IMG/VR virus record: IMGVR_UViG_3300021962_000628
Coordinates: 1 to 24,503 of that record
Length of the DNA: 24,503 nucleotides
Source of the DNA: a virus
Reading direction: 5' to 3' (one strand)
The notes below the pieces were generated by a model. It was not told the origin of the DNA, searched no databases, and saw nothing but the letters and a program-made list of their open reading frames with translations. Made by a program: the position numbers and the translations under genes. Below, one piece after another: positions 1 through 23,839 of this stretch. Each line of letters opens with the position of its first letter. Position 1 is the first letter of the stretch.

Positions 1-1595
1 TTGACGTGGAACTTGTTGACCGTCTTGAGGATAAACTGAAACTGATTGACTTGTGTTTCACTCGTGCATTTGACGCAAAGGTGAACTTTAATGATATTGC
101 CTATCAGGTAAGAACCTGGGATGCGATTATTTACAACTATCTTCTGAACAAGAACATTGTGATCCCTCAGAAGGAACGCAATAGTAAGAGTGAGAAGTAT
201 GCTGGTGCCTATGTGAAGGAACCGATTCCTGGTTCTTATGAGTGGGTTGTAAACTTTGACCTTAACTCTCTATATCCACACCTCATCATGCAATACAACA
301 TCTCTCCAGAGACTTTGTTGGAACAACGACATCCCAGTGTCACTGTGGATAAGGTTCTGAAGAAAGAACTGACTTTTGAGATGTATAAGGATAATGCTGT
401 GTGTGCCAATGGTGCAATGTATCGCAAAGATGTTCGTGGATTCCTTCCTGAGTTGATGGAAAAGATGTATAACGAACGAGTTATCTTCAAAAAGAAGATG
501 ATTGAAGCGAAGAAAGCCTACGAGAAAACCAAGACTAAGGAATTGGAGAAAGAGATTTCTCGTTGCGATAATATTCAGATGGCTAAAAAGATTGCACTTA
601 ACTCTGCTTATGGTGCCATCGGTAATGAGTATTTCCGTTATTATAAACTTGCAAATGCGGAAGCGATCACTCTTTCTGGACAGGTAGCCATTCAGTGGAT
701 TGAGGAGAAGATGAACTCCTACATGAACAATGTTCTTAAAACTAAAGAGGTTGATTATGTCATTGCTATGGATACTGACTCCATTTATCTTAATATGGGG
801 CCTTTTGTTGACGCTGTATTCAAAGGGAGAGAGAAAACTACTGATGAAGTTGTCAATTTCCTTGATAAGGTGTGTAGTCTGGAACTTGAAAAGTATATTG
901 AGGGTTCTTACCAAGAACTGGCCGACTACTTGAATGCATACGATCAGAAGATGTACATGAAACGCGAGAACATCGCAGAACGTGGCATCTGGACTGGTAA
1001 GAAACGTTATATCCTTCGTGTGTGGGACTCTGAGGGTGTTCGTTATGAGAAACCCAAACTCAAGATGATGGGTATTGAAGCGATCAAAACTTCTACTCCT
1101 GCACCTTGTCGTAAGATGATTAAAGATGCAATTGATCTTATCATGACAAAAGGTGAGGATGATGTGATTGATTTTATTGAGAATGCTCGTAAGGAATTCA
1201 AGAAACTAAAACCAGAAGAGATTGCATTCCCTCGTAGTGTTTCTGAAGTTAATAAGTGGATGTCTCGTACAGAAATGTATAATAAGGGTTGTCCGATTCA
1301 TGTTCGGGGAGCGATTCTATACAACCACTACACCAAAAAATCTGGACTGGATAAAAAGTATCCTGCAATTCAGAGTGGTGAAAAGATCAAGTTCTTATAT
1401 TTGAAAGTTCCGAATCCTATTCAAGAGAATGTCTTTTCATTCATTCAGGACTTCCCGAGGGAACTTGGATATGAACAATATGTTGATTATGATACTCAAT
1501 TTGACAAGTCATTTGTAGAACCAATGAAGATTATTCTTGATTCTATTGGATGGTCTGTGGAAAAAACTATCAGTTTGGAGTCTTTCTTCGGATGA
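1..1595 (+). CDS. 43: DNA polymerase gp43, family B (5'-truncated by window edge)
   Basis: Replicative family B DNA polymerase of the T4 type. The window opens inside the gene. The codon at 3-5 (Asp) followed by VELVDRLEDK matches the Exo III position (YNxxDV) of the 3'-5' exonuclease, so the N-terminal and most exonuclease sequence, roughly 320 residues by comparison with T4, lies upstream. The GTG at 6 is an internal Val codon, not a start. Polymerase motif A (FDLNSLYPH, Asp at 258-260), motif B (KIALNSAYG, about 586-612) and motif C (AMDTDSIYL, DTD at 771-779) are intact, so the palm and fingers should be active. The extreme C terminus, SLESFFG, looks like the sliding-clamp-binding peptide found at this place in T4-type polymerases. 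The stop overlaps the next start (ATGA, 1592-1595). No intron or intein interrupts the visible part. Confidence 0.97.
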   Translation, partial: DVELVDRLEDKLKLIDLCFTRAFDAKVNFNDIAYQVRTWDAIIYNYLLNKNIVIPQKERNSKSEKYAGAYVKEPIPGSYEWVVNFDLNSLYPHLIMQYNISPETLLEQRHPSVTVDKVLKKELTFEMYKDNAVCANGAMYRKDVRGFLPELMEKMYNERVIFKKKMIEAKKAYEKTKTKELEKEISRCDNIQMAKKIALNSAYGAIGNEYFRYYKLANAEAITLSGQVAIQWIEEKMNSYMNNVLKTKEVDYVIAMDTDSIYLNMGPFVDAVFKGREKTTDEVVNFLDKVCSLELEKYIEGSYQELADYLNAYDQKMYMKRENIAERGIWTGKKRYILRVWDSEGVRYEKPKLKMMGIEAIKTSTPAPCRKMIKDAIDLIMTKGEDDVIDFIENARKEFKKLKPEEIAFPRSVSEVNKWMSRTEMYNKGCPIHVRGAILYNHYTKKSGLDKKYPAIQSGEKIKFLYLKVPNPIQENVFSFIQDFPRELGYEQYVDYDTQFDKSFVEPMKIILDSIGWSVEKTISLESFFG

Positions 1596-1753
1596 GTAAA
1601 TATGTTGTCTGTTGGGCTGAGCGCGGAGAACTCTCTCCTTCCCAACATCGTAGATATTTTGATGATGAAATCACTGCAAAATGGTTTGCAAAAGAGATGA
1701 AAAACCTGTATAATTGGGTTATATGCACAGAGTCAAAAAATTTGGAGGAATGA
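1592..1753 (+). CDS. small hypothetical protein, 53 aa
   Basis: Short ORF whose ATG overlaps the gene 43 stop as ATGA, a sign of translational coupling. The product starts MSKYVVCWAERG and contains a run like DDEITAKWFAKEMKNLYNWV, so it is a small acidic/aromatic protein without a membrane segment. An upstream in-frame ATG at 1550 lies inside gene 43 and is less likely than 1592. I do not recognise a family. Its place between 43 and uvsX suggests an early/middle accessory protein, but the sequence shows no function. Confidence 0.72.
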   Translation: MSKYVVCWAERGELSPSQHRRYFDDEITAKWFAKEMKNLYNWVICTESKNLEE

Positions 1754-1918
1754 ATGGATCTGCCTATTAATGATGACGAACTGAATACTATTATTAAGTC
1801 TTTGACTCTTGGTGGAGATACTGCACTGTATCAAAAATTAAAACTTGTGAAGGAACTTCGTGATCAAGATCTTCCTTATAAAAAAATTCTTCGTGAACAA
1901 TATGGGATGGTAGCTTAA
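1754..1918 (+). CDS. small hypothetical protein, 54 aa
   Basis: ORF starting MDLPINDDELNTIIKSL and ending GMVA, directly after the stop of the preceding gene. A strong Shine-Dalgarno GGAGGA at 1744-1749 lies 4 bases upstream of the ATG. The ATG at 1750 is out of frame and stops after six codons. The stop overlaps the uvsX start (TAATG, 1916-1920). The product is a small helical, charged protein with no membrane segment. I do not recognise the family. Codon choice and coupling to both neighbours make it a real gene. Confidence 0.72.
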   Translation: MDLPINDDELNTIIKSLTLGGDTALYQKLKLVKELRDQDLPYKKILREQYGMVA

Positions 1919-2919
1919 TGGATTTTCTTAAAGATATTGTAAAAGAAATTGGTGGTGAGTATACACAACTTGCTGCTGATATTGACGAAACAGAGACTTA
2001 TGTTGACACAGGTTCGTACATTTTTAACGCACTGGTTTCAGGTAGCATATTTGGTGGTGTATCTGGGAATAAGATTACTGCTATTGCTGGAGAGTCTTCT
2101 ACTGGAAAGACTTTCTTCTCTCTCGCTGTGGTCAAGAATTTTCTTGATTCCAATCCTGATGGTTACTGCCTCTATTTTGACACTGAGGCTGCTATTAACA
2201 AGTCACTTCTAGAGTCTCGTGGCATTGATCTGACTCGTTTGGTAGTCGTCAATGTTGTCACCATTGAAGATTTTCGTGGTAAAGCGTTAAAGGCTGTTGA
2301 CCTATACTTAAAAAAACCTTTAGAAGAACGCAAACCCTGCATGTTTGTGTTAGACTCTCTAGGTATGCTTTCCACTGAGAAGGAAATTACTGACGCACTC
2401 AACGACAAACAAGTTCGTGACATGACCAAATCTCAACTGGTCAAAGGTGCATTCCGTATGATCACTCTCAAGTTGGGTCAAGCGAACATCCCTATGATCG
2501 TTACCAATCACACTTATGATGTCATCGGAGCTTATGTACCAACTAAAGAAATGGGAGGAGGTAGTGGACTCAAGTACGCTGCTTCTACAATCATTCATCT
2601 CTCAAAGAAAAAAGAGAAGGATGGAACAGAAATCGTCGGAAACATTATCAAAGCTAAGACTGCTAAATCTCGTTTAAGTAAGGAGAATAAAGATGTGGAA
2701 GTACGCCTTTATTACGACGAGCGTGGCCTTGATCGTTATTATGGTCTTCTTGAACTCGGTGAGATTGGCGGTCTATGGAAAAATGTGGCTGGTAGATATG
2801 AAATTGATGGAAAGAAAATCTACGGAAAACAAATCCTCGCAAATCCAGAGGAATATTTCACTCCAGAAGTAATGCAGGCCTTAGATGAGATTGCACAGAA
2901 AGAGTTTTGTTATGGATGA
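1918..2919 (+). CDS. uvsX: UvsX, RecA-like recombinase
   Basis: T4-type RecA homologue of 333 residues that forms the presynaptic filament on single-stranded DNA for recombination-dependent replication and repair. Walker A is GESSTGKT at residues 58-65 and Walker B is the hydrophobic run MFVLDSLG near residue 145. The NIPMIVTNHTYD segment and the GGGSGLKYAAS loop match the ssDNA-contacting loop region of the family. Length is a little shorter than T4 UvsX (about 390 residues). The start overlaps the preceding stop as TAATG, and its 3' end overlaps the next ORF by 8 bases. It lies in a replication/recombination cluster with 43 and 41. Confidence 0.96.
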   Translation: MDFLKDIVKEIGGEYTQLAADIDETETYVDTGSYIFNALVSGSIFGGVSGNKITAIAGESSTGKTFFSLAVVKNFLDSNPDGYCLYFDTEAAINKSLLESRGIDLTRLVVVNVVTIEDFRGKALKAVDLYLKKPLEERKPCMFVLDSLGMLSTEKEITDALNDKQVRDMTKSQLVKGAFRMITLKLGQANIPMIVTNHTYDVIGAYVPTKEMGGGSGLKYAASTIIHLSKKKEKDGTEIVGNIIKAKTAKSRLSKENKDVEVRLYYDERGLDRYYGLLELGEIGGLWKNVAGRYEIDGKKIYGKQILANPEEYFTPEVMQALDEIAQKEFCYG

Positions 2920-3451
2920 TTTCATCAAGGTCTATGAAAATGTCCTTGATGAAAAAACATGTGAGATTTTGATTCACATGTTTGATGTTAGTGGGTACAA
3001 AGAAATTGTTAATAACAAAGGTACTCCTAACTTCACACAACTGAATATCAATCAGAAACACCCAGAGAGTGTTCAACAACTTTCTCTGGTTACAAAAAAC
3101 ATATTAGATCTTTACAAAAAAGAGTTTTCGGATTACACTAGATGGTATCCGCAGAGACTTTTCTTGGAAGAGTTTCGTATCAAGAAATATCATTCCAGAA
3201 GTCATGATCGTTTTGACATTCATGTTGATGTTGAAGATCACCCATCTGCAAGAAGGTATCTAGCTTTCTTGTATTATCTGAATGATGATTTCACTGGTGG
3301 AGAGACTGAGTTTCCTCATCACAATAAAAAGATTGTCCCTAAGAGAGGGTCAGTCATGGTGTTTCCTCCAACTTGGCAGTATCCTCATGCGGGATTGCGA
3401 GTTCACAAAGGAGTTAAGTATATTATGTCCACTTATTGTCACTACTACTAA
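2912..3451 (+). CDS. 2-oxoglutarate/Fe(II)-dependent oxygenase (prolyl-4-hydroxylase-like)
   Basis: Protein of 179 residues with the double-stranded beta-helix motifs of 2OG/Fe(II) dioxygenases: iron ligands H104-x-D106 (IHVDVEDH) and H159 (QYPHAGLRVHKG), and K169 ten residues after the distal His to bind 2-oxoglutarate. The stretch YYLNDDFTGGETEFP is typical of the P4H-like group. The substrate cannot be read from sequence. Such enzymes are common in marine T4-like phages. The start chosen is ATG 2912, overlapping the uvsX stop by 8 bases; an in-frame start at 2885 lies deeper in uvsX and adds nine residues before the conserved MDDFIKVYEN start. The stop overlaps the gene 41 ATG (TAATG). Confidence 0.92.
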   Translation: MDDFIKVYENVLDEKTCEILIHMFDVSGYKEIVNNKGTPNFTQLNINQKHPESVQQLSLVTKNILDLYKKEFSDYTRWYPQRLFLEEFRIKKYHSRSHDRFDIHVDVEDHPSARRYLAFLYYLNDDFTGGETEFPHHNKKIVPKRGSVMVFPPTWQYPHAGLRVHKGVKYIMSTYCHYY

Positions 3452-4833
3452 TGGAAAGGGTTGAAACTACTATTCTCAGGAGTCTCGCATTTAATGAAGA
3501 ATATTCCAGAAAGGTTCTGCCTTTTATCCGAACCGAATACTTTACAGACTATAGTGAGAGAGTAGTTTTTGAGGAGATCTGTAAGTTTATCTTCAATTAT
3601 AACAAACTTCCTACACAGGAGATTCTCCGTGTGGAAGTGGATACTCGTACAGATCTGAATGAGAACTCTTACAAAGAAGTAACTGAATATGTTGCTCAAC
3701 TAGATGATTCTCGTCTAGATACTCAATGGTTGATTGATACCACTGAAAAGTGGTGTCGTGATAAAGCCATTTACCTTGCATTGATGGAGTCCATCTCTAT
3801 CGTTGATGGTAAAGACTCTAAGAAGACTAAGGATGCGATTCCATCTATTCTTTCGGATGCACTCGCAGTTAGTTTTGATAGTAATGTAGGACACGATTAC
3901 CTCCATGACTACGAAGAACGATTCAACTTCTACCATCAGGTTGAGGACAAAATTCCTTTTGACTTGGAATTCTTCAACAAGGTTACAAAGGGCGGACTTC
4001 CTAATAAAACTCTCAACATTGCTCTTGCAGGCACTGGTGTTGGTAAGTCTCTATTCATGTGTCATGTTGCTGCTGCTTGCTTACTCCAAGGTAAGAATGT
4101 TTTGTACATTACGATGGAGATGGCTGAAGAAAGAATTGCGGAACGCATTGACGCAAATCTTCTGAATGTAAATATCCAAGAGATTCAAAATCTTCCTAAA
4201 CAGATGTTTGAGTCCAAGGTTACTAAACTTGCTGCAAAAACCCAAGGAACTCTTATAATTAAAGAGTATCCCACTGCGAGTGCTCATAGTGGACACTTTA
4301 AGTCACTTCTTAATGAACTTGCACTTAAGAAGTCATTTAAGCCTGATATTATTTTCATTGATTATCTTAATATATGTGCTTCCTCTCGGTATCGCGGAAA
4401 CCTTTCTGTCAATTCATATTCTTATATTAAAGCGATTGCAGAAGAACTTCGGGGGTTGGCTGTTGAGTCCAATGTCCCTATCGTATCAGCCACCCAGACT
4501 ACTCGATCTGGTTATGGTAGCTCTGATGTTGACCTCACTGATACTAGTGAATCCTTTGGTCTTCCTGCTACTGCTGATCTTATGTTTGCCCTTATTTCTA
4601 CAGAAGAACTTGAAGGACTTGGACAAATTATGGTAAAACAACTGAAGAATCGTTATAATGATCCTACAGTAAACAAGAGGTTTGTTCTTGGGATTGATCG
4701 TGCAAAGATGCGTTTGTATGATTGCGAACAATCTGCTCAGGGTGACATCCTTGACAGTGGACAGGATGAGGAGTATACTTATGAAGAAAAGAAAACCGGC
4801 CCTAAAAAATCATTTGAAGGATTTAAATTCTAG
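3451..4833 (+). CDS. 41: Replicative DNA helicase gp41 (DnaB/T4 family)
   Basis: Hexameric 5'-3' replicative helicase of 460 residues that unwinds the fork and works with primase gp61. Walker A is GTGVGKS at residues 194-200, with VLYITMEMAEERIAERID following as in gp41/DnaB. Walker B is IIFIDYLN with D304. An N-terminal helical domain fills residues 1-150. The start ATG 3451 overlaps the oxygenase stop; an in-frame ATG at 3436 lies inside the oxygenase gene. The C-terminal tail is acidic/basic and ends KKSFEGFKF. The last 63 bases (4771-4833) recur at 6668-6724 before mazG, and a sigma70-like promoter (4751-4779) is encoded inside the tail. The gene is complete. Confidence 0.96.
   Translation: MERVETTILRSLAFNEEYSRKVLPFIRTEYFTDYSERVVFEEICKFIFNYNKLPTQEILRVEVDTRTDLNENSYKEVTEYVAQLDDSRLDTQWLIDTTEKWCRDKAIYLALMESISIVDGKDSKKTKDAIPSILSDALAVSFDSNVGHDYLHDYEERFNFYHQVEDKIPFDLEFFNKVTKGGLPNKTLNIALAGTGVGKSLFMCHVAAACLLQGKNVLYITMEMAEERIAERIDANLLNVNIQEIQNLPKQMFESKVTKLAAKTQGTLIIKEYPTASAHSGHFKSLLNELALKKSFKPDIIFIDYLNICASSRYRGNLSVNSYSYIKAIAEELRGLAVESNVPIVSATQTTRSGYGSSDVDLTDTSESFGLPATADLMFALISTEELEGLGQIMVKQLKNRYNDPTVNKRFVLGIDRAKMRLYDCEQSAQGDILDSGQDEEYTYEEKKTGPKKSFEGFKF
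4751..4779 (+). promoter_or_regulatory. Sigma70-like promoter inside the 3' end of gene 41
   Basis: TTGACA at 4751-4756, a 17-base spacer, then TATACT at 4774-4779 preceded by GAG. This is close to the bacterial sigma70 consensus at ideal spacing. It lies in the coding sequence of the gp41 C-terminal tail and would start transcription near 4786, giving the radical SAM gene (ATG 4843) its own early-type promoter. A similar element precedes mazG (6648-6676) and gp61 (17322-17350). Confidence 0.68.
4771..4833 (+). repeat. Direct repeat, copy 1: gene 41 3' tail
   Basis: Copy 1 of a direct repeat whose copy 2 is 6668-6724. Aligned in codons, 50 of 57 bases agree, and copy 1 has two extra codons (ACC GGC). 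Of five coding differences, four are synonymous and one is Glu/Asp; the stop codons differ (TAG against TGA). Both copies include the -10 hexamer TATACT and the SFEGFKF codons. Confidence 0.9.
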
Positions 4834-4842
4834 AGTTTGGTT

Positions 4843-6651
4843 ATGAAAAATATTTACATGTTTCAACCTCAATATTCTGTTGAAGTTAGAAATGAGGATA
4901 ACTATTGGTTGCCATATAGTGTGGGGTGTTTATGGTCTTATTGTTCTCAATTTGAAGACATTACTCAAAACTTCAGGTTAGAAGATTTGATCTTTAGAAG
5001 AGAAAATCCTAAAAATATACTTGATCGATTGAAAGATCCTGCAGTATGTGTGTTTAGTTGCTACGTATGGAATGAAAAATATAATTTACATGTTGCAAAA
5101 TTAATTAAAGAAAAATATCCAAATTGCATAATTGAATTTGGTGGACCTCAAGCAACAGAAAAACTTTTACAATATAATTTTATTGATTGTATAATTGTTT
5201 CCGAAGGTGAAATTAATTTTTTAAACTTTTTGAGATCAATAATTACTGGAAATGAAATAAAAAAGATATATGAAAAGGAGAGAATATATAATTTAGATTT
5301 TCCTAGTCCATATACAACTGGAGTTTTTGATAAAATAATTGAAAATAATCCTGATGTTCTTTGGTCTATGACTATAGAGACAAACAGGGGATGTCCACAT
5401 AAATGCACATTCTGCGATTGGGGAACTTTAACTTACACTAAAGTACGTCACTTTGACCTTAAAAGAGTTGAGGATGATATTGATTGGGCTACAAAAAATA
5501 ATGTTGCGTTTATTTTTAATGCCGATGCAAATTTCGGCATGTTTAAAGATAGAGATTTAGAAATTGCTAAATTGTTTAGAACTGCTGCTAATAAAAGTCA
5601 AAAATTAGAGGCAGTGAGCATACAATACTCTAAAAATTCTACTGAAGTTATTTTTGAAATAGCAAAAATTCTTGGTGATATAAGTCGTGGAGTAACTTTA
5701 AGTGTTCAAAGTATGAATGAACCAACACTTAAAGCAATTAAAAGAAAAAATATGAGTATCAATAAGATCTCTGAACAAATTGAAAAAAGTAAAAAATATG
5801 GTGTAAAAACTTATACTGAACTAATTCTTGGTCTCCCTGACGAAACTTTAGATAGTTGGAAAGATGGATTTTCCAAAATACTAGAATGTGGTCAGCATGA
5901 ATCAATTGATGTTTGGTTTTGCCAAATGTTTGGAGATACTGAATTGAATAGTATATCATCTAGAGAAATTTTTGGAATTAAAACTATTAAAGCTGAAAAT
6001 TTTCTTACTTTTAGTAATGATAAAGATTATGATGGTGTAAGTGAAATAGTGGAGTTAGTTTCTGAAACTAACACAATGACAAGTGATGAACTTGTTGAAG
6101 CTTATATGTATAGTTGGATGATAATACAATTTCATATTTCTGGATATTCTCAGTTAATTTCAAAATATTTTAATAATATTTTGAAAATATCTTATAGAGT
6201 ATTTTATGACAATCTATTTGAATATATTAAAAATAATTCTGGATCGTTAGGTAATCATTATAGAGATACTTACAACTTAGTAAACAATTATGTAAAGAAT
6301 GGAAAGATATCCAATAAAACAAAACACGGACACAATCTTCATTTACATTCTGGAAGTTCCGCTTTTCTTTTTAATAATAAGGAATATGTTTTTGAGGAAA
6401 TACAAAAATGTTCTGAAGTGTTGCATTCTATAGACATTAATATAATAGATATTCAAAAATCATTTATCTTTGATGAGAATAAAAATTATCCTTTTATAAT
6501 TCAGTCCAACTACAATTTAGATACTTGGGAATCGAAACCATATACTTATATTGTTGATACTAAATTTAAATCATACGATAAAAATAATCCTCATGAAAAT
6601 TTTGTTTTACGCCGTAAGGGAGTATTAAAAAATATTTTTAAAGTAACTTGA
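4843..6651 (+). CDS. B12-binding-type radical SAM protein
   Basis: Protein of 602 residues. The N-terminal ~160 residues look like a cobalamin-binding Rossmann domain of the radical SAM partner type: VFSCYVWN at 70-77, FGGPQAT near 99-105 and IIVSEGE at 117-123, but no DxHxxG motif. The radical SAM cluster ligands are C184, C188 and C191 (CPHKCTFCDWG). NADANFG and ELILGLPDETLDSW follow, as in this superfamily. It presumably reductively cleaves SAM for a methylation, cyclisation or rearrangement; the substrate is unknown. The start chosen is ATG 4843, with a TTG at 4837 as alternative. Base composition is much more AT-rich than its neighbours: 12 of 60 bases are G/C at 6421-6480 and 17 of 60 at 5101-5160, against 30 of 60 at 4021-4080 in gene 41. 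It sits between two copies of the gene 41 tail, which points to recent acquisition. Confidence 0.88.
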   Translation: MKNIYMFQPQYSVEVRNEDNYWLPYSVGCLWSYCSQFEDITQNFRLEDLIFRRENPKNILDRLKDPAVCVFSCYVWNEKYNLHVAKLIKEKYPNCIIEFGGPQATEKLLQYNFIDCIIVSEGEINFLNFLRSIITGNEIKKIYEKERIYNLDFPSPYTTGVFDKIIENNPDVLWSMTIETNRGCPHKCTFCDWGTLTYTKVRHFDLKRVEDDIDWATKNNVAFIFNADANFGMFKDRDLEIAKLFRTAANKSQKLEAVSIQYSKNSTEVIFEIAKILGDISRGVTLSVQSMNEPTLKAIKRKNMSINKISEQIEKSKKYGVKTYTELILGLPDETLDSWKDGFSKILECGQHESIDVWFCQMFGDTELNSISSREIFGIKTIKAENFLTFSNDKDYDGVSEIVELVSETNTMTSDELVEAYMYSWMIIQFHISGYSQLISKYFNNILKISYRVFYDNLFEYIKNNSGSLGNHYRDTYNLVNNYVKNGKISNKTKHGHNLHLHSGSSAFLFNNKEYVFEEIQKCSEVLHSIDINIIDIQKSFIFDENKNYPFIIQSNYNLDTWESKPYTYIVDTKFKSYDKNNPHENFVLRRKGVLKNIFKVT

Positions 6652-6676
6652 CTTTTCTTTTTATAAAGAGTATACT
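6648..6676 (+). promoter_or_regulatory. Sigma70-like promoter upstream of mazG, overlapping the radical SAM stop
   Basis: TTGACT at 6648-6653, a 17-base spacer, and TATACT at 6671-6676 preceded by GAG. The -35 spans the stop codon of the radical SAM gene (TGA 6649-6651), while the -10 lies in the leftover copy of the gene 41 tail. Transcription would start near 6683 and read mazG. Its geometry is identical to the promoter in the true gene 41 tail. Confidence 0.65.
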
Positions 6677-6724
6677 TACGAAGACAAGAAACCTAAAAAG
6701 TCGTTTGAAGGATTTAAATTTTGA
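6665..6724 (+). pseudogene. Vestigial gene 41 C-terminal tail (repeat copy 2)
   Basis: In frame from 6665 the bases read KEYTYEDKKPKKSFEGFKF then TGA, nearly the same as the real gp41 ending (EEYTYEEKKTGPKKSFEGFKF). Nothing upstream can translate it as part of gp41, because the radical SAM stop and a T-rich spacer precede it. Its TGA overlaps the mazG ATG (TGATG, 6722-6726), the same kind of junction seen elsewhere in this cluster. It therefore looks like the original 41/mazG junction left behind after the radical SAM gene was inserted. It still carries the mazG promoter -10 and a GAAGGA ribosome-binding region at 6707-6712. Confidence 0.85.
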
Positions 6725-7146
6725 TGACTGAAACTATGACTAAATCTGTTGATTTTAAAAAATATACTCAATTCGTTGATGCAGTAACTTCCGAAGCATC
6801 TACTGATTTTCTTGCACTTTCCGATCGACTTGTTCAACTGGATGAGAAAGGTGCAAATATTGAGCGTCTTCTAACCGCTGGTGTGGGTATCAATGCAGAA
6901 GGTGGTGAGTTCCTTGAGATCATTAAGAAAATGATCTTCCAAGGTAAACCATGGAATGCTGATAATAAAGAACATCTTCTAATCGAACTCGGTGACATTA
7001 TGTGGTATGTTGCACAAGCTTGCATGGCACTTGAAGTTACTATTGATGAAGTAGTTGCTCGTAATGTGACTAAACTTGAGAAGCGTTATCCTGGTGGTTC
7101 TTTTGATGTTTACTATTCCGAAAATCGGGCGGAAGGTGATCTGTGA
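6724..7146 (+). CDS. mazG: MazG-like nucleotide pyrophosphohydrolase
   Basis: Protein of 140 residues with the metal-binding arrangement of MazG-type all-alpha NTP pyrophosphohydrolases: E59-x-x-E62 (and E65) in INAEGGEFLE, and E88-x-x-D91 in IELGDIMWYVAQ. The family hydrolyses (d)NTPs to monophosphates; in cyanophages it has been discussed in relation to (p)ppGpp or to recycling of host nucleotides. The ATG at 6724 overlaps the TGA of the vestigial gene 41 tail; the upstream TTG at 6721 is not needed. The probable Shine-Dalgarno GAAGGA at 6707-6712 is provided by that vestige. The GTG of the next gene overlaps the stop. Confidence 0.9.
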   Translation: MTETMTKSVDFKKYTQFVDAVTSEASTDFLALSDRLVQLDEKGANIERLLTAGVGINAEGGEFLEIIKKMIFQGKPWNADNKEHLLIELGDIMWYVAQACMALEVTIDEVVARNVTKLEKRYPGGSFDVYYSENRAEGDL

Positions 7147-7328: not shown

Positions 7329-7358
7329 ACCCTTCCATAAATATTTGGAAGGGTTTTT
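7329..7358 (+). terminator. Intrinsic terminator with a late-promoter element in its loop
   Basis: A perfect 9-base-pair stem pairs 7329-7337 (ACCCTTCCA) with 7346-7354 (TGGAAGGGT), with an 8-base loop and five T residues at 7354-7358. It ends the mazG operon. The loop and adjoining base read ATAAATAT, the phage late-promoter core, so termination of one block and initiation of the next occupy the same 30 bases. Confidence 0.85.
7337..7344 (+). promoter_or_regulatory. Late promoter element ATAAATAT
   Basis: T4-like late promoters are recognised by a gp55-type sigma factor through a TATAAATA-like -10 box. This copy starts 30 bases ahead of the ATG at 7367 and lies in the loop of the terminator hairpin. 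Seven further copies in the window have the same offset from a start codon. Confidence 0.65.
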
Positions 7359-9775: not shown

Positions 9776-12700
9776 ATGGCTAGTTGGGAAGAATTTTCGC
9801 GTATTGTTGCAGAAGCTAAAGCATCTAAAAAATTAGATCCAGTCGGTCAGGAAGATGACGATGTGGATAATGATGGTGATTCGGATTCTTCAGATAGTTA
9901 TTTGAAGAAGAGGAGAGCTACTGTAGGTGCTGCAATTGCTGCAGACAAAAAGAAGAAAGTTTCAGAAGCACTAGATCCAGTAGGGCAGGAAGATAAAGAT
10001 ATTGACAACGACGGAGACCACGATAAGTCTGATAAGTATCTTTTAAATCGTAGAAAAGTTAGAGCCAAAGTCATTCCCCCTCAGGAAAGACTAAAAACGG
10101 ATCGTAATATGTTCAATATTCCTAAGTCTGAACAGGAAGCTGCTCGTGAGAGAACTCTTGCGAAGGCAAAGGCAAAGAGAATGAAAGAGGAAGTAGAACA
10201 GATTGACGAGATTGCTCCACTTGCGGTTGGCGCTTTAGCAGCAGGCGCTCTTGCTGCCCCAGCTCTTGCAAAAAAATTCTTAAAACCAGCAGCAGATAAA
10301 GCACTTGATAATGCATCAAAAAATCCAAATCGCCGTCTTGTGACTGGTGGAACCGTTGGAGATCTCAACAAGGCTAGAGGTATTTCTAATTCTTACCAAC
10401 CAGAAGGTGAAATGGTTGAAGAAGATAAAGAGTATCGTCGTGAGATGAGAAAGGCTGCTGCAAGAGAAAGAGCGGAAGAGAAGTCTGGTAGAAAAGAAGA
10501 AGGTAAGAGATCTGCAAAAGCTCCAGGAAGACTCGGTAAGTCTGCAGGAACTTCCTATGCAGATAAAGAACAACTTTCTATTAAAGGTCATGATGAAGTA
10601 ACCAAGAAAGCAAAACATACTGTCGGAAACCCATTCCCAGAACATGTTGAACTAACTTATGAGGCGAAAAAGTCTGATTATCTCAATGACAAACTTCCAA
10701 GTGATGAAAAACTTGGATATGGATTTAGTGATAATAAGAAGAGAGTCAAGGATCTCAAGAAACTAAAGAGATTGGTAAAACATTATGATGGTATGAAGAA
10801 AGGTGATCCAATGTATAATTCATACCAACCAGAAGGTGAACAACTTGAAGAAAAGGCTCTAAGTAGAGCACAACAGAGATTTATGGGTATGGTTTATGCT
10901 GCCAAGAAGGGAGAGACTCCTGCATCTCCTGAGGTTGCAAAGGCTGCATCTGGTATGTCTAAGAAGGCTGCAAGAGATTTTGCAAAGACCAAACACGAAG
11001 GACTTCCTGAGAAAAAGGAAGAAACTAAGGAAGAACTTTCTTTAGTTGATAAAATCATTGAGGAAGTTCTCAACGAAGCACCAAAGGGAACTATTTCTGG
11101 AGGAAAGAGCAAAGCAAAAAAGTACAAAGCAGTTGCTAAACAAGCTAAGTTGGCAGCTGCTGTCAACCAAGTAATGAAAGGTGAATCCGAACCAGAGTCG
11201 GAACCAGCTCCAAAAAAATCTGAAGAAGAAAGAAAAGAAACTGCAAAAAAACAAGTAAAAAGGGGTAAGTCAGATCCATCTGCTCTGACTCGTCGCGCTG
11301 CGGTTGCTGGTGCTGCTAAATTGAAAGCTGAAAAAGAAAAGACCAAGAGACAACGTGAGAGACAAAAGTATGAAACTCAGAAAAGAAAAGAAAAGAGTCA
11401 AGAAAAAAGAGCTGAAAAGGCTAAAGAATCAAAAGAGAGACAACAGAAATTAGAAGCCTCTATGAAAGAAAAGAGGATAAAATCTGCCCAATCCGAAAGT
11501 GATAGAGAAGAAGCGAGAAAAGAAAAAACAAAGGGAGAAGTGAAAGGAGCTATTAAAAGTGCTATTAAAGGTATAAAAACTGGACCGGTAGTTAGTGATA
11601 AAGCGAAAGGAAGTACTGGAGCTACTATAGATTCTGCTATCGAAACTGCAACTAGTGTTGGTAGTGCAGTTGGAAAAGCTGCAAGAGGAATTATTTCCGC
11701 AAAAATGAAAGAAAGGAAAAGAAAGAAACAGGAAGAAAAAAGAGTTGAAAGACATGAAAAAATTAGACAAGAAATGAGTAAAGAGGATTTTTCTAATTGG
11801 AGAGAAGAGTTTATCTTTGAGGTAGACGATCAATCCATCAAAGAACCACAACAAAAGGTTATTGATGTCTCTAAAAAGAAAAACAAAATTGAGATCAATC
11901 CAAACATGAGTGAAGGTTGTGGATGTGATGAAAAAGAAAAGGAAGAAACTCCTAAAAAGGATATGAGAGATTTCTCAACTAAAGTTAATCTTCTCAAAAC
12001 AAAAGCCAGAGTAATGGGAGCTAAAAATCCTATAGTGATGGTTGCTTCCGAAGAAACTGATAATATTCAGGAGATCGCTCCACTTGTAGGAATTCTTGCA
12101 AGAGTTGCTGGTGGTGCTGCCACAAGAGGTATCGCCGCTAGAGGTGCTGGTTTTGCAGCTAGAGGTGCTTTGGAAAGGAAAGCAGTTGATATCGCCGCAC
12201 AAAAGGGTGGTGAGATGACTGCTGATATGGTTCAGAAAAGACTTGAGAAGAAGTTTAAAAATGAGGATGAAGAACTTGAAGAAGGCATGACTATGGATGA
12301 CTTCAAAAAACAAAGAAGGCGTCAAAAGGAAGAACCACCAATTAGAAAGCGTGGTGGAATAAGTGCTCCAGAAGATGAACGCAGTATTGGTGGTGAAGCA
12401 AATAGAAAAAATAAAGATTACTGGGCAAGTGTTGTAGGTAAAAATAGAGATAGAGGTGCTGGAAACAAAGCAAAAAGAAGAGCATCAGAACTCAATAAAG
12501 AGGAGTTTGAAATTGAAGAGGGAATGACCCTCAAAGACTTCAAGAAGAAGCGTAGTGCTCAGAAGCAAAAGGAAAAGCGTGCTGCTGAGAAAACTTCTCC
12601 TCTCCGCAGAGCAGGCATCCATGATGATAAGGCATCTCCAGAAAGAGATGCAAGACATCGTGCGAATGTAGACCCCGATTTTGATGGGGATGATTCAGTA

Positions 12701-13018
12701 AATTATCCTGGTGGTAAGTTGAAGAATCCTAAGAAGATTCGTAAAGCAAAGGCACTTGGAGAACTTGGTGAGTCTGCTGCATGGACAAAGAAAGAGGGAA
12801 AGTCTGAGAGCGGTGGTCTAAACGAGAAAGGTCGCCGCTCATACGAACGCGAGAATCCTGGTTCTGATCTGAAAGCACCTTCTAAGAAAGTTGGTAACCC
12901 TCGTCGTGCATCATTTTGCTCAAGAATGAAAGGCATGAAGGAGAAACTTACCTCCGCTAAAACTGCTAACGATCCTGATTCCAGAATCAATAAGTCCCTT
13001 AGAGCTTGGAATTGCTGA
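9776..13018 (+). CDS. Large Lys/Glu-rich late protein with repeats and prohead-protease-like sites, 1080 aa
   Basis: The product is strongly charged (Lys/Glu/Arg/Ala), mostly predicted helical and repetitive. The N terminus MASWEEFSRIVAEA is like a capsid-targeting peptide. Two Asp-rich modules, residues 20-46 and 66-92, share DPVGQED, DNDGD and a terminal YL-RR. SYQPEGE is repeated at 206-212 and 349-355, IDEIAPL (143-149) recurs as IQEIAPL (764-770), and EEGMT-DFKK is repeated near 835-845 and 914-924. Glu-ending sites such as VLNE|A (431-435), MSE|G and LGE|S (997-1001) recur. Residues ~999-1080, with GGLNEKGRRSYERENPG, RRASFCSRM and a final LRAWNC, resemble a small conserved phage domain (DUF6321-like, from memory). 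Role inferred: head-internal, scaffold or core protein that is proteolysed. Confidence 0.85.
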   Translation: MASWEEFSRIVAEAKASKKLDPVGQEDDDVDNDGDSDSSDSYLKKRRATVGAAIAADKKKKVSEALDPVGQEDKDIDNDGDHDKSDKYLLNRRKVRAKVIPPQERLKTDRNMFNIPKSEQEAARERTLAKAKAKRMKEEVEQIDEIAPLAVGALAAGALAAPALAKKFLKPAADKALDNASKNPNRRLVTGGTVGDLNKARGISNSYQPEGEMVEEDKEYRREMRKAAARERAEEKSGRKEEGKRSAKAPGRLGKSAGTSYADKEQLSIKGHDEVTKKAKHTVGNPFPEHVELTYEAKKSDYLNDKLPSDEKLGYGFSDNKKRVKDLKKLKRLVKHYDGMKKGDPMYNSYQPEGEQLEEKALSRAQQRFMGMVYAAKKGETPASPEVAKAASGMSKKAARDFAKTKHEGLPEKKEETKEELSLVDKIIEEVLNEAPKGTISGGKSKAKKYKAVAKQAKLAAAVNQVMKGESEPESEPAPKKSEEERKETAKKQVKRGKSDPSALTRRAAVAGAAKLKAEKEKTKRQRERQKYETQKRKEKSQEKRAEKAKESKERQQKLEASMKEKRIKSAQSESDREEARKEKTKGEVKGAIKSAIKGIKTGPVVSDKAKGSTGATIDSAIETATSVGSAVGKAARGIISAKMKERKRKKQEEKRVERHEKIRQEMSKEDFSNWREEFIFEVDDQSIKEPQQKVIDVSKKKNKIEINPNMSEGCGCDEKEKEETPKKDMRDFSTKVNLLKTKARVMGAKNPIVMVASEETDNIQEIAPLVGILARVAGGAATRGIAARGAGFAARGALERKAVDIAAQKGGEMTADMVQKRLEKKFKNEDEELEEGMTMDDFKKQRRRQKEEPPIRKRGGISAPEDERSIGGEANRKNKDYWASVVGKNRDRGAGNKAKRRASELNKEEFEIEEGMTLKDFKKKRSAQKQKEKRAAEKTSPLRRAGIHDDKASPERDARHRANVDPDFDGDDSVNYPGGKLKNPKKIRKAKALGELGESAAWTKKEGKSESGGLNEKGRRSYERENPGSDLKAPSKKVGNPRRASFCSRMKGMKEKLTSAKTANDPDSRINKSLRAWNC
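9833..9913 (+). repeat. Asp-rich module, copy 1 (residues 20-46)
   Basis: Encodes LDPVGQED, then VDNDGDSDSSDSYLKKR. The spacing of Asp/Asn/Gly resembles dockerin or EF-hand-type calcium loops (D-x-D-G-D). Copy 2 is at 9971-10051; the two share DPVGQED, DNDGD, SD and YL at equal spacing. Confidence 0.8.
9971..10051 (+). repeat. Asp-rich module, copy 2 (residues 66-92)
   Basis: Encodes LDPVGQED, then IDNDGDHDKSDKYLLNR, parallel to copy 1 at 9833-9913. Confidence 0.8.
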
Positions 13019-22488: not shown

Positions 22489-23133
22489 ATGGCAAGGCAG
22501 GGGATTAGTACAGGAACATCGCCTAATGATGGTTTAGGCGACTCTCTGTTAGCTGGTGCTGTAAAAATTAATCAAAATTTTCTGGAAATTTATAATACTT
22601 TTGGAAACGGAAATACATTAACGAGTTATGTTAATACTGCTGGTATAGCAACTTATGCAACCACATCTGGTGTTGCAACTATATCTGGATATGCAACAAC
22701 AGCGGGTGTTGCAACTTATTCATCATCATCTGGAGTTTCGACAACAGTAAGTGGAGGATTTGGTTCACTTATAGGATTAACAGTTGTTGGACTTACCACA
22801 TTATCAGTCAATAGTTCTATTGATGCATTAAGAATTACTCAAACTGGTGGCGGAAATGCCCTAGTTGTTGAAGATGAAACAAATCCTGATGCTACTCCCG
22901 TTATAGTAACTGGTATTGGATCTGTTGGCATAGGAACAAATTCTCCAGTATGTTTATTTCATGTCCAAGGTGATACATTAATAACTGGAATTGCCACAGT
23001 TGGACTTGCAAATACTTCTACTCCAGTAAATAATTCTCAAATGAGTTTTGAACTCACATCAGACACAAATTTGAGAATTAAAGTTCGCGGAACTGATGGT
23101 GTGTTGAGATCTGCAGACATTACACTTGCATAA
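22489..23133 (+). CDS. Tail-fibre-like structural protein, 214 aa
   Basis: The N-terminal ~40 residues (GISTGTSPNDGLGDSL, KINQNFLEIYNTFG) are the attachment-type module found on many cyanophage fibre and virion proteins. Residues ~50-86 are a short Ala/Thr/Ser/Gly repeat (TAGIATYATTSGVATISGYA, then TAGVATYSSSSGVST). The C-terminal part contains VGIGTNSPVCLFHVQGD and LITGIATVG, a beta-strand pattern seen in trimeric fibre shafts. It is much shorter than a full receptor-binding fibre, so it may be a small fibre, a collar/whisker or decoration protein. It has its own late promoter. Confidence 0.8.
   Translation: MARQGISTGTSPNDGLGDSLLAGAVKINQNFLEIYNTFGNGNTLTSYVNTAGIATYATTSGVATISGYATTAGVATYSSSSGVSTTVSGGFGSLIGLTVVGLTTLSVNSSIDALRITQTGGGNALVVEDETNPDATPVIVTGIGSVGIGTNSPVCLFHVQGDTLITGIATVGLANTSTPVNNSQMSFELTSDTNLRIKVRGTDGVLRSADITLA
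22637..22746 (+). repeat. Imperfect tandem repeat in the fibre-like gene
   Basis: Repeats of a unit encoding T-(T/A)-(A/S)-G-(V/I)-A-T-(Y/I), with DNA such as GGTGTTGCAACT recurring at 22671-22682 and 22706-22717. Low-complexity repeats of this sort commonly expand and contract in fibre genes. Confidence 0.6.
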
Positions 23134-23135
23134 TA

Positions 23136-23143
23136 CTAAATAC
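23136..23143 (+). promoter_or_regulatory. Late promoter element CTAAATAC
   Basis: CTAAATAC three bases after the stop of the fibre-like gene, 32 bases ahead of the ATG at 23168. Confidence 0.6.
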
Positions 23144-23167
23144 CTCAGTGTCGCAAAAAGAATATCT

Positions 23168-23839
23168 ATGACTTTAGATCTTCATAACTTCTTCAAGTAT
23201 TATGATGATAATAACGCGAATCATGTAGCTGCAGTTCAATGGTTAGAGGATAACCTTCCTGCACAATTCATGGATGATTCTGAATCCGAATGGATTGGAA
23301 TTTTTAGAACAAAACCCCCTACTCCAGAAGTTCTCGCAGTCCCTTACTACAATCAAGTAGACAACTATAGAGATGCACATAGAACTTGCAACTCTTCATC
23401 GTGTGCTATGTGTCTGTCTTTCCTCAAGCCAGGCAGCATCAAGGGCGATGATGAGTATGTCAAGAAAGTATTTGAGATTGGTGATACGACTGACCATGCC
23501 GTACAGACGAAAGTTCTGGCAGCTTATGGTGTTAAGTCACACTTTAGTTACAATCTATCTTTTGCTGATATTGATAAAAGTCTGGACGCTGGGAAGCCCG
23601 TTGTTATTGGCATACTCCATAGGGGTTCTCTTTCTGCACCTACTGGTGGGCACATGTGTGTTGTTATAGGAAAGACCCCAGATGGAAAGGGTTACTATAT
23701 CAACGATCCATATGGTTCTCTAAACGATAACTATACCGGTCCAGTAACAAATGGTAAGAAAACCATTTACACCAAAGCAGTTCTTAAGCATCGTTGGTGC
23801 CCAGGTGGCAACGATGGTTGGGGTAGAATTTTTGACTGA
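23168..23839 (+). CDS. C39-like cysteine peptidase with shared N-terminal module
   Basis: Protein of 223 residues. Residues 1-47 (LDLHNFFKYYD, AVQWLEDNLP, IGIFR) form a module also found at the N terminus of the adjacent lysozyme. Residues ~55-200 match a papain-like C39-type peptidase: Q63 in VPYYNQVDN for the oxyanion hole, candidate nucleophile C74 in RTCNSSSCAM (C79 is an alternative), H162 in TGGHMCVVIG and D180 in YYINDPYG. It may cut peptides, possibly murein cross-links, given its neighbour. The start chosen is ATG 23168; an in-frame TTG at 23126 lies in the previous gene. No signal peptide is seen. A late promoter is present at 23136. Confidence 0.85.
   Translation: MTLDLHNFFKYYDDNNANHVAAVQWLEDNLPAQFMDDSESEWIGIFRTKPPTPEVLAVPYYNQVDNYRDAHRTCNSSSCAMCLSFLKPGSIKGDDEYVKKVFEIGDTTDHAVQTKVLAAYGVKSHFSYNLSFADIDKSLDAGKPVVIGILHRGSLSAPTGGHMCVVIGKTPDGKGYYINDPYGSLNDNYTGPVTNGKKTIYTKAVLKHRWCPGGNDGWGRIFD
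23174..23308 (+). repeat. Shared N-terminal module, copy 1 (in peptidase gene)
   Basis: Encodes residues 3-47 of the C39-like peptidase. By eye about 28 of 43 aligned residues equal those in the lysozyme copy at 23860-23991, and DNA runs such as GCAGTTCAATGGTTAGA are identical in both. Confidence 0.85.

What the first reader, a model, noticed from the sequence alone, without database searches (positions are those of the whole stretch)
4843..6651. AT-rich, B12-binding-type radical SAM enzyme as an unusual phage accessory gene
A 602-residue radical SAM protein with a cobalamin-domain-like N terminus has base composition very different from the adjacent replication genes (12/60 and 17/60 G+C in two sampled lines, against 30/60 in gene 41). 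It is not an obvious nucleotide or photosynthesis gene. It lies in the early/middle replication cluster with its own promoter, which suggests action early in infection, for example DNA-base or cofactor modification or alteration of a host surface or metabolite.
Basis: partly seen in the sequence, partly recalled or inferred. Interest (0 to 1): 0.6.

Follow-up and report, generated by a model that had tools for sequence, protein, structure and literature searches.

The report
Cyanophage B12-dependent radical SAM methylase
A virus that infects marine or freshwater cyanobacteria carries a foreign-looking, AT-rich gene for a vitamin-B12-using enzyme that probably attaches methyl groups to carbon atoms of a sugar or glycan; uncultured relatives of this virus carry the same gene, usually in two copies next to a sugar-transferring enzyme, but no isolated phage checked here has it.

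Summary
Observation confirmed: 4843-6651 is an intact 602-aa ORF, 27.3% G+C (GC3 17%) against 38.6% for the rest of the window, between gene 41 and mazG of a T4-like cyanophage. It is a cobalamin-dependent (class B) radical SAM methylase of TokK/CysS architecture: PDB sequence match to TokK E=3e-73, predicted fold TM 0.87-0.89 and Z 35 over 583 residues, with the Cys triad, the Trp under cobalt and the second Trp invariant in 43 homologues. IMG/VR holds 75 related loci, INPHARED none closer than 26%. In most of them two overlapping rSAM genes sit antisense between head genes 20 and 21, usually behind a GT25-like glycosyltransferase; other phage and bacterial relatives lie in nucleotide-sugar or polysaccharide clusters. 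Best reading: C-methylation of a sugar/glycan (class firm, substrate inferred). In the window the gene is a cassette inserted at the gene 41/mazG junction, flanked by two copies of the gene 41 3' end that each carry a promoter-like site; the empty site is seen in phage S-SRM01. DNA-base modification is not supported for this phage but not excluded. A new phage branch of a known enzyme kind; no recent cellular donor found.

The parts
4843..6651 (+). B12-dependent radical SAM methylase gene (602 aa): residues 1-147 cobalamin-binding Rossmann domain with Trp76; about 170-400 radical SAM domain with Cys184-x3-Cys188-x2-Cys191 and Trp193; about 410-602 C-terminal domain
3436..4833 (+). gene 41, DnaB-like replicative helicase, directly upstream; nearest S-SCSM2R (87% aa)
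4766..4829 (+). Copy 1 of the gene 41 3' end, in frame in gene 41 (...EEYTYEEKKTGPKKSFEGFKF*)
6663..6720 (+). Copy 2 of the gene 41 3' end (encodes EYTYEDKKPKKSFEGFKF*), just after the radical SAM gene and running into mazG; matches the native gene 41/mazG junction of S-SRM01
   Evidence: alignment score 71 against at most 33 in 2000 shuffles
4751..4779 (+). Promoter-like TTGACA-17-TATACT upstream of the radical SAM gene
   Evidence: consensus match only
6648..6676 (+). Promoter-like TTGACT-17-TATACT upstream of mazG, overlapping the radical SAM stop codon
   Evidence: consensus match only
6721..7146 (+). mazG nucleotide pyrophosphohydrolase, downstream neighbour; nearest S-SRM01 (83% aa), not S-SCSM2R (57%)
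7329..7354 (+). Intrinsic-terminator-like hairpin just behind the 59-aa ORF that follows mazG
   Evidence: consensus match only

Best explanation
The gene encodes a cobalamin-dependent radical SAM C-methylase built like TokK and CysS. Inferred mechanism: cob(I)alamin, held base-off over Trp76, takes a methyl from one SAM; a second SAM bound to the [4Fe-4S] cluster (Cys184/188/191) is cleaved to a 5'-deoxyadenosyl radical, which takes a hydrogen from an unactivated carbon of the substrate; the carbon radical then takes the methyl from methylcobalamin. The substrate is most likely a sugar: a nucleotide sugar or a glycan that a partner glycosyltransferase assembles, giving a C-methylated sugar on the host surface or on the virion. 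In this phage the gene is a horizontally acquired cassette inserted exactly behind gene 41 with a duplicated gene 41 tail, so that both it and mazG keep a promoter-like site. Shown by computation: enzyme family, fold, cofactor residues, purifying selection on relatives, insertion anatomy. Inferred: catalysis, sugar substrate, destination of the product.
For: Class: phmmer to TokK 3.3e-73 and CysS 1.1e-38; model pLDDT 87.6, TM 0.87-0.89 to TokK, Z 35.1 over 583 residues; Trp76, the three Cys and Trp193 invariant in 43 homologues, Trp76 aligning with TokK Trp76, the residue under cobalt, and Trp193 with TokK Trp215 (PMC13331322, PMC9692996, PMC12667779). Function under selection in relatives: dN/dS about 0.05-0.07 for both copies. 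Sugar: glycosyltransferase cluster in 37 loci, overlapping the radical SAM gene; GT25/ColGalT1-like fold; epimerase directly upstream in group B and L052, DegT aminotransferase in L055; bacterial relatives with epimerase, aldo/keto reductase, NUDIX, TPP-enzyme pair, GHMP kinase, GDP-mannose dehydratase, SIS isomerase, nucleotidyl transferase and, in Azospirillum, GT61 and GDP-mannose dehydratase. Cassette: repeat and empty site in S-SRM01.
Against: No sugar gene lies beside it in the window itself, which is only 24.5 kb. Closest characterised enzymes (TokK, CysS) act on pantetheinyl-bound antibiotic precursors, not sugars, and a Streptomyces relative sits in an NRPS cluster. A pocket position (259; TokK Arg, CysS Trp271) is Ser here and variable, so the substrate cannot be read from residues. 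7-deazaguanine genes lie near the more distant phage groups B and C. The sugar association is phylogenetically non-independent: perhaps four or five independent contexts.
Confidence: 0.55

Rival explanations
1. The enzyme modifies a DNA base or nucleotide (for example C-methylation of a 7-deazaguanine or of a sugar attached to a base) to protect phage DNA from host nucleases.
For: Group C loci carry GTP cyclohydrolase I, a phosphoribosyltransferase and a QueE-like gene close to the radical SAM gene, and group B a QueC-like gene. In the window it sits among replication and nucleotide genes.
Against: No such gene was recognised beside the close relatives (group A) or in the genes of the window that were annotated; the neighbours of the radical SAM gene in groups B and C include sugar genes nearer to it; the fold is of the TokK/CysS small-molecule type, not an RNA/DNA modifier.
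Confidence: 0.15
2. The enzyme C-methylates an amino-acid side chain of a virion protein, which the partner GT25-like enzyme may then glycosylate, as collagen hydroxylysine is galactosylated.
For: Group A operon lies inside the head-gene module next to portal and prohead protease; the glycosyltransferase fold is closest to mimivirus R655 and human COLGALT1; other B12 radical SAM enzymes (MgmA, Mmp10) methylate protein residues (PMC9692996).
Against: The enzyme is far closer to TokK/CysS (Z 35/31) than to MgmA (Z 19); phage and bacterial neighbours make nucleotide sugars; antisense orientation to the head genes gives no sign of co-regulation.
Confidence: 0.15
3. The enzyme acts on a carrier-protein- or CoA-bound acyl substrate (lipid or antibiotic-like metabolite), as TokK and CysS do.
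For: Closest solved structures act on pantetheinylated substrates (PMC12667779); a homologue sits in an NRPS cluster.
Against: No carrier protein, adenylation or PKS/NRPS gene was recognised among the phage neighbours that were annotated.
Confidence: 0.1
4. The arrangement in the window is an assembly chimera; the gene does not belong behind gene 41 in any real genome.
For: Only this record shows the gene at this site; the copy-2 junction pattern was found in no other IMG/VR contig; composition and the nearest relative both change at the insertion.
Against: Longest exact match between the two gene 41 tails is short (17 bases), the left junction has no repeat, both junctions keep promoter-like sites and intact reading frames, and S-SCSM2R carries another gene (DUF6445) at the same site.
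Confidence: 0.05

Closest known systems
TokK (carbapenem C-methylase, Streptomyces tokunonesis; PDB 7KDX/7KDY)
   Same: Whole-length fold, domain order, Trp under cobalt, CxxxCxxC, second Trp after the last Cys
   Different: About 27% identity; pocket position 259 Ser instead of Arg; phage genome, no antibiotic cluster; shorter overall
CysS (cystobactamid iterative methylase; PDB 9N1B-9N1D)
   Same: Same architecture and cofactor residues (Trp75)
   Different: 21% identity; gate residue Trp271 corresponds to Ser259 here
NCBIfam NF033712 KedN5 family B12 radical SAM C-methyltransferases
   Same: Best family profile hit (E 1e-49 over residues 24-386)
   Different: 169 bits against a cut-off of 700, so outside the family as curated
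Bacterial homologues in polysaccharide clusters (Azospirillum sp. TSA2s WP_136701551.1; Pelagibacteraceae L083-L085, L088)
   Same: 33-36% identity over residues 21-490; same enzyme core
   Different: Embedded in nucleotide-sugar clusters; separated from the phage family by a long branch
Radical SAM genes already reported in marine T4-like phages and pelagimyophages (PMC5332604, PMC7029224)
   Same: Radical SAM genes as accessory cassettes in T4-like marine phages
   Different: The passages read there name radical SAM genes only in general; no B12-dependent, TokK-like subfamily is identified

Membership tests
Cobalamin-dependent (class B) radical SAM methylases, TokK/CysS type | N-terminal Rossmann cobalamin domain, radical SAM barrel, C-terminal domain in that order | tested here: met
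   Model aligns over residues 1-602 with TokK (Z 35.1, 583 residues) and CysS (Z 30.9)
Cobalamin-dependent (class B) radical SAM methylases, TokK/CysS type | CxxxCxxC cluster motif | tested here: met
   Cys184, Cys188, Cys191, invariant in 43 homologues
Cobalamin-dependent (class B) radical SAM methylases, TokK/CysS type | Trp below cobalt (TokK W76, CysS W75) and Trp two residues after the last Cys (TokK W215, CysS W188) | tested here: met
   Trp76 and Trp193, invariant (PMC9692996, PMC12667779)
Cobalamin-dependent (class B) radical SAM methylases, TokK/CysS type | Cobalamin binding and methyl transfer to an sp3 carbon | not testable with these tools
   Needs purified protein
Cobalamin-dependent (class B) radical SAM methylases, TokK/CysS type | Pantetheinylated substrate | tested here: inconclusive
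   Position 259 differs from both TokK and CysS; no carrier-protein gene recognised nearby
KedN5 family (NCBIfam NF033712) | Score above the curated cut-off of 700 bits | tested here: not met
   169.3 bits
MiaB/RimO methylthiotransferases | TIGR00089 cut-off 251 bits | tested here: not met
   32 bits
BchE (anaerobic Mg-protoporphyrin cyclase) | TIGR02026 cut-off 481 bits | tested here: not met
   41 bits
GT25 (for the partner gene in relatives, not in the window) | GT-A fold close to COLGALT1, with an acidic E/DxD-like motif | tested here: met
   Z 13.0 to mimivirus R655 and 12.6 to COLGALT1; MEDDYDLS invariant; PHROG glucosyltransferase 2.8e-33; but no Pfam match

The most novel reading that the evidence does not exclude
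Uncultured T4-like cyanophages carry a phage-specific operon of a GT25-like glycosyltransferase and two B12-dependent radical SAM C-methylases that builds a C-methylated glycan on the virion or host surface during infection, running on the host's pseudo-B12; the window shows one such methylase moved as a single-gene cassette into the replication module.
Probability: 0.25. Interest if true: 0.8.

Novelty: new variant of a known kind. Interest (0 to 1): 0.58.

Why it matters
B12-dependent radical SAM C-methylation is best known from antibiotic biosynthesis. Finding a long-diverged, strongly selected, often tandem branch of it in phages of abundant cyanobacteria would add a B12 demand to cyanophage infection, would give the unexplained glycan gene sets of large cyanophages (suspected to be 'stuffer DNA', PMC3037559) a testable chemical product, and would offer new C-methylases for sugar chemistry. 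The duplicated gene 41 tail also shows concretely how an accessory gene can enter a conserved replication operon without cutting the next gene off from a promoter.

Tried and rejected
PHROGs gave no family for the protein. INPHARED had only two gut-phage contigs at 23-26%; plasmids only homologues at 33% or less among those listed. Photosystem genes were sought in 24 related contigs to confirm a cyanobacterial host: none found, but these are fragments; the host assignment rests on portal, polymerase and gene 41 similarity to Synechococcus phages. The exact copy-2 junction found nothing in IMG/VR. Profile search of the glycosyltransferase against PDB sequences gave only chance hits; the fold comparison worked. 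A MiaB-like tRNA methylthiotransferase and BchE were considered and rejected on scores. A recent acquisition from a cellular donor was considered: the nearest bacterial sequences found are only 34-36% identical and fall outside a well-supported phage clade. No paper found described B12-dependent radical SAM enzymes in phages, but only open-licence papers were searched.

Full report
What is there. The ORF at 4843-6651 (602 aa) is intact and lies 9 bases behind the gene 41 stop codon. Its G+C is 27.3% and GC3 16.9%, against 38.9% and 32.4% in gene 41; no other stretch of the same length in the window falls below 34.1%. The window is a 24.5-kb IMG/VR record of a T4-like cyanophage: polymerase, UvsX, a 2OG-Fe(II) oxygenase, gene 41, MazG, and further on primase and ribonucleotide reductase (the last two named by reading the translations). 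Its nearest isolate over 1-4843 is Synechococcus phage S-SCSM2R (82% DNA identity).

Enzyme class. NCBIfam's best profile is the KedN5 B12 radical SAM C-methyltransferase family (E 1e-49) but far under its cut-off. Against the PDB the protein matches TokK (3.3e-73, residues 21-484) and CysS (1.1e-38). A model from 43 homologues (pLDDT 87.6) superposes on TokK over almost its whole length (TM 0.87-0.89; Z 35.1, 583 residues, 2.6 A) and then on CysS (Z 30.9), with other B12 radical SAM enzymes well behind. Trp76, which lies under cobalt in TokK, the Cys triad 184/188/191 and Trp193 are invariant. These residues are tied to cobalamin and SAM binding in PMC13331322, PMC9692996 and PMC12667779. Position 259, where TokK has Arg and CysS its gate residue Trp271, is Ser here and variable in the family, so the substrate is probably different from both (inference).

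Relatives. INPHARED has no close relative, but IMG/VR returned 75 loci, most at 65-71% identity. Group A (about 60 loci) are T4-like phages whose portal is 76% identical to S-SM2: on the strand opposite to head genes 17-23 lies glycosyltransferase -> radical SAM copy 1 -> radical SAM copy 2, between genes 20 and 21; S-SM2 has only two small ORFs there. Copies 1 and 2 overlap by 4 bases in nearly every locus (48 pairs), and the glycosyltransferase overlaps copy 1, which suggests translational coupling. Some loci lack the glycosyltransferase (for example L005, L006, L012, L015, L017) and L003/L046 carry three radical SAM genes. The window protein is sister to the copy 2 clade (100/99 support for the joint clade). 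Both copies evolve under strong purifying selection (median dN/dS 0.05 and 0.07, though dS is about 1 and so approximate). In all group A loci the radical SAM genes are more AT-rich than their surroundings. The phage family forms one clade on a long branch from the bacterial homologues found (the tool warns of long branches meeting).

Sugar context. The group A glycosyltransferase (PHROG 'glucosyltransferase') folds like mimivirus R655 and human collagen galactosyltransferase COLGALT1 (Z 13.0 and 12.6). In group B the gene directly upstream is an NAD-dependent sugar epimerase, in L052 a member of the same cluster, and in L055 a DegT-type aminotransferase. Bacterial relatives in SAR11 and other Alphaproteobacteria are flanked by epimerases, aldo/keto reductase, NUDIX, a split TPP enzyme, GHMP kinase, GDP-mannose dehydratase, SIS isomerase and nucleotidyl transferase, and in Azospirillum sp. 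TSA2s by GT61, GDP-mannose dehydratase and the same companions. In S-SCSM2R, a homologue of the glycosyltransferase sits next to another kind of radical SAM gene in a glycan cluster. A Streptomyces relative, however, is in an NRPS cluster. I therefore favour sugar or glycan C-methylation, at moderate confidence.

Insertion anatomy. The last ~60 bases of gene 41 occur twice: in frame at 4766-4829 and again at 6663-6720, just before mazG (score 71; none of 2000 shuffles above 33). In S-SRM01 and DSL-LC02 gene 41 runs directly into mazG, and the second copy together with mazG aligns continuously with S-SRM01. The nearest relative also changes at this point: gene 41 is 87% identical to S-SCSM2R and 77% to S-SRM01, mazG 57% and 83%. 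S-SCSM2R has a different gene (DUF6445) at the same site. The gene 41 tail holds a promoter-like TTGAC(A/T)-17-TATA(A/C)T element in S-SRM01, DSL-LC02 and both copies in the window, but not in S-SCSM2R or S-CAM4. In copy 2 the spacer has changed while both hexamers remain, as expected if it still serves mazG (inference). Which copy is the newcomer, and whether recombination between different phages or a local duplication made it, cannot be told.

Cofactor supply. Marine Synechococcus makes pseudo-B12 (PMC5816740), and cobS is a cyanophage core gene (PMC3037559). Base-off binding over a Trp should tolerate pseudo-B12 (inference, untested).

Verdict. A real, functional-looking phage gene of a known enzyme kind, in a phage branch and gene context that I found described nowhere, with an informative cassette insertion. 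Reaction class likely (about 0.85); sugar substrate plausible (about 0.6); destination of the product unknown.

Noticed in passing
L003:3839-9764, L046: Three radical SAM genes of this family around one glycosyltransferase gene; a copy-number series of one, two and three exists among related phages.
   Followed up: partly
L010:9721-10380 (-), cluster c3 in 49 loci: A conserved 220-aa protein downstream of the portal gene, convergent with radical SAM copy 2, has no Pfam or PHROG match and no INPHARED homologue; it may belong to the same cassette.
   Followed up: partly
L055:4715-7879; L065:5023-5619: 7-deazaguanine-type genes (GTP cyclohydrolase I, QueE-like, QueC-like) near the radical SAM gene in the more distant phage groups.
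   Followed up: partly
L126 (S-SCSM2R 223246-244052): The nearest isolate has a glycan gene cluster with several glycosyltransferases, an AHBA-synthase-like gene, an amidinotransferase, 2OG oxygenases and a radical SAM gene annotated as SkfB/NifB/PqqE family.
   Followed up: partly
L077:14847-15479: S-SCSM2R carries a DUF6445 gene (annotated 2OG-Fe(II) oxygenase) at the same gene 41/mazG site, which suggests an insertion hot spot.
   Followed up: partly
window 9776-13018: A 1080-aa Lys/Glu-rich protein with repeated VGQEDxDxDNDGDxDxSDxYL segments and strong A over T skew on the coding strand.
   Followed up: no
window 23126-23839: A 237-aa protein that by eye resembles a C39-like cysteine peptidase; could be a lysis or processing enzyme.
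   Followed up: no
L090: A contig labelled Flavobacteriaceae MAG carries a SAR11-like homologue and neighbours; probably a binning error.
   Followed up: no
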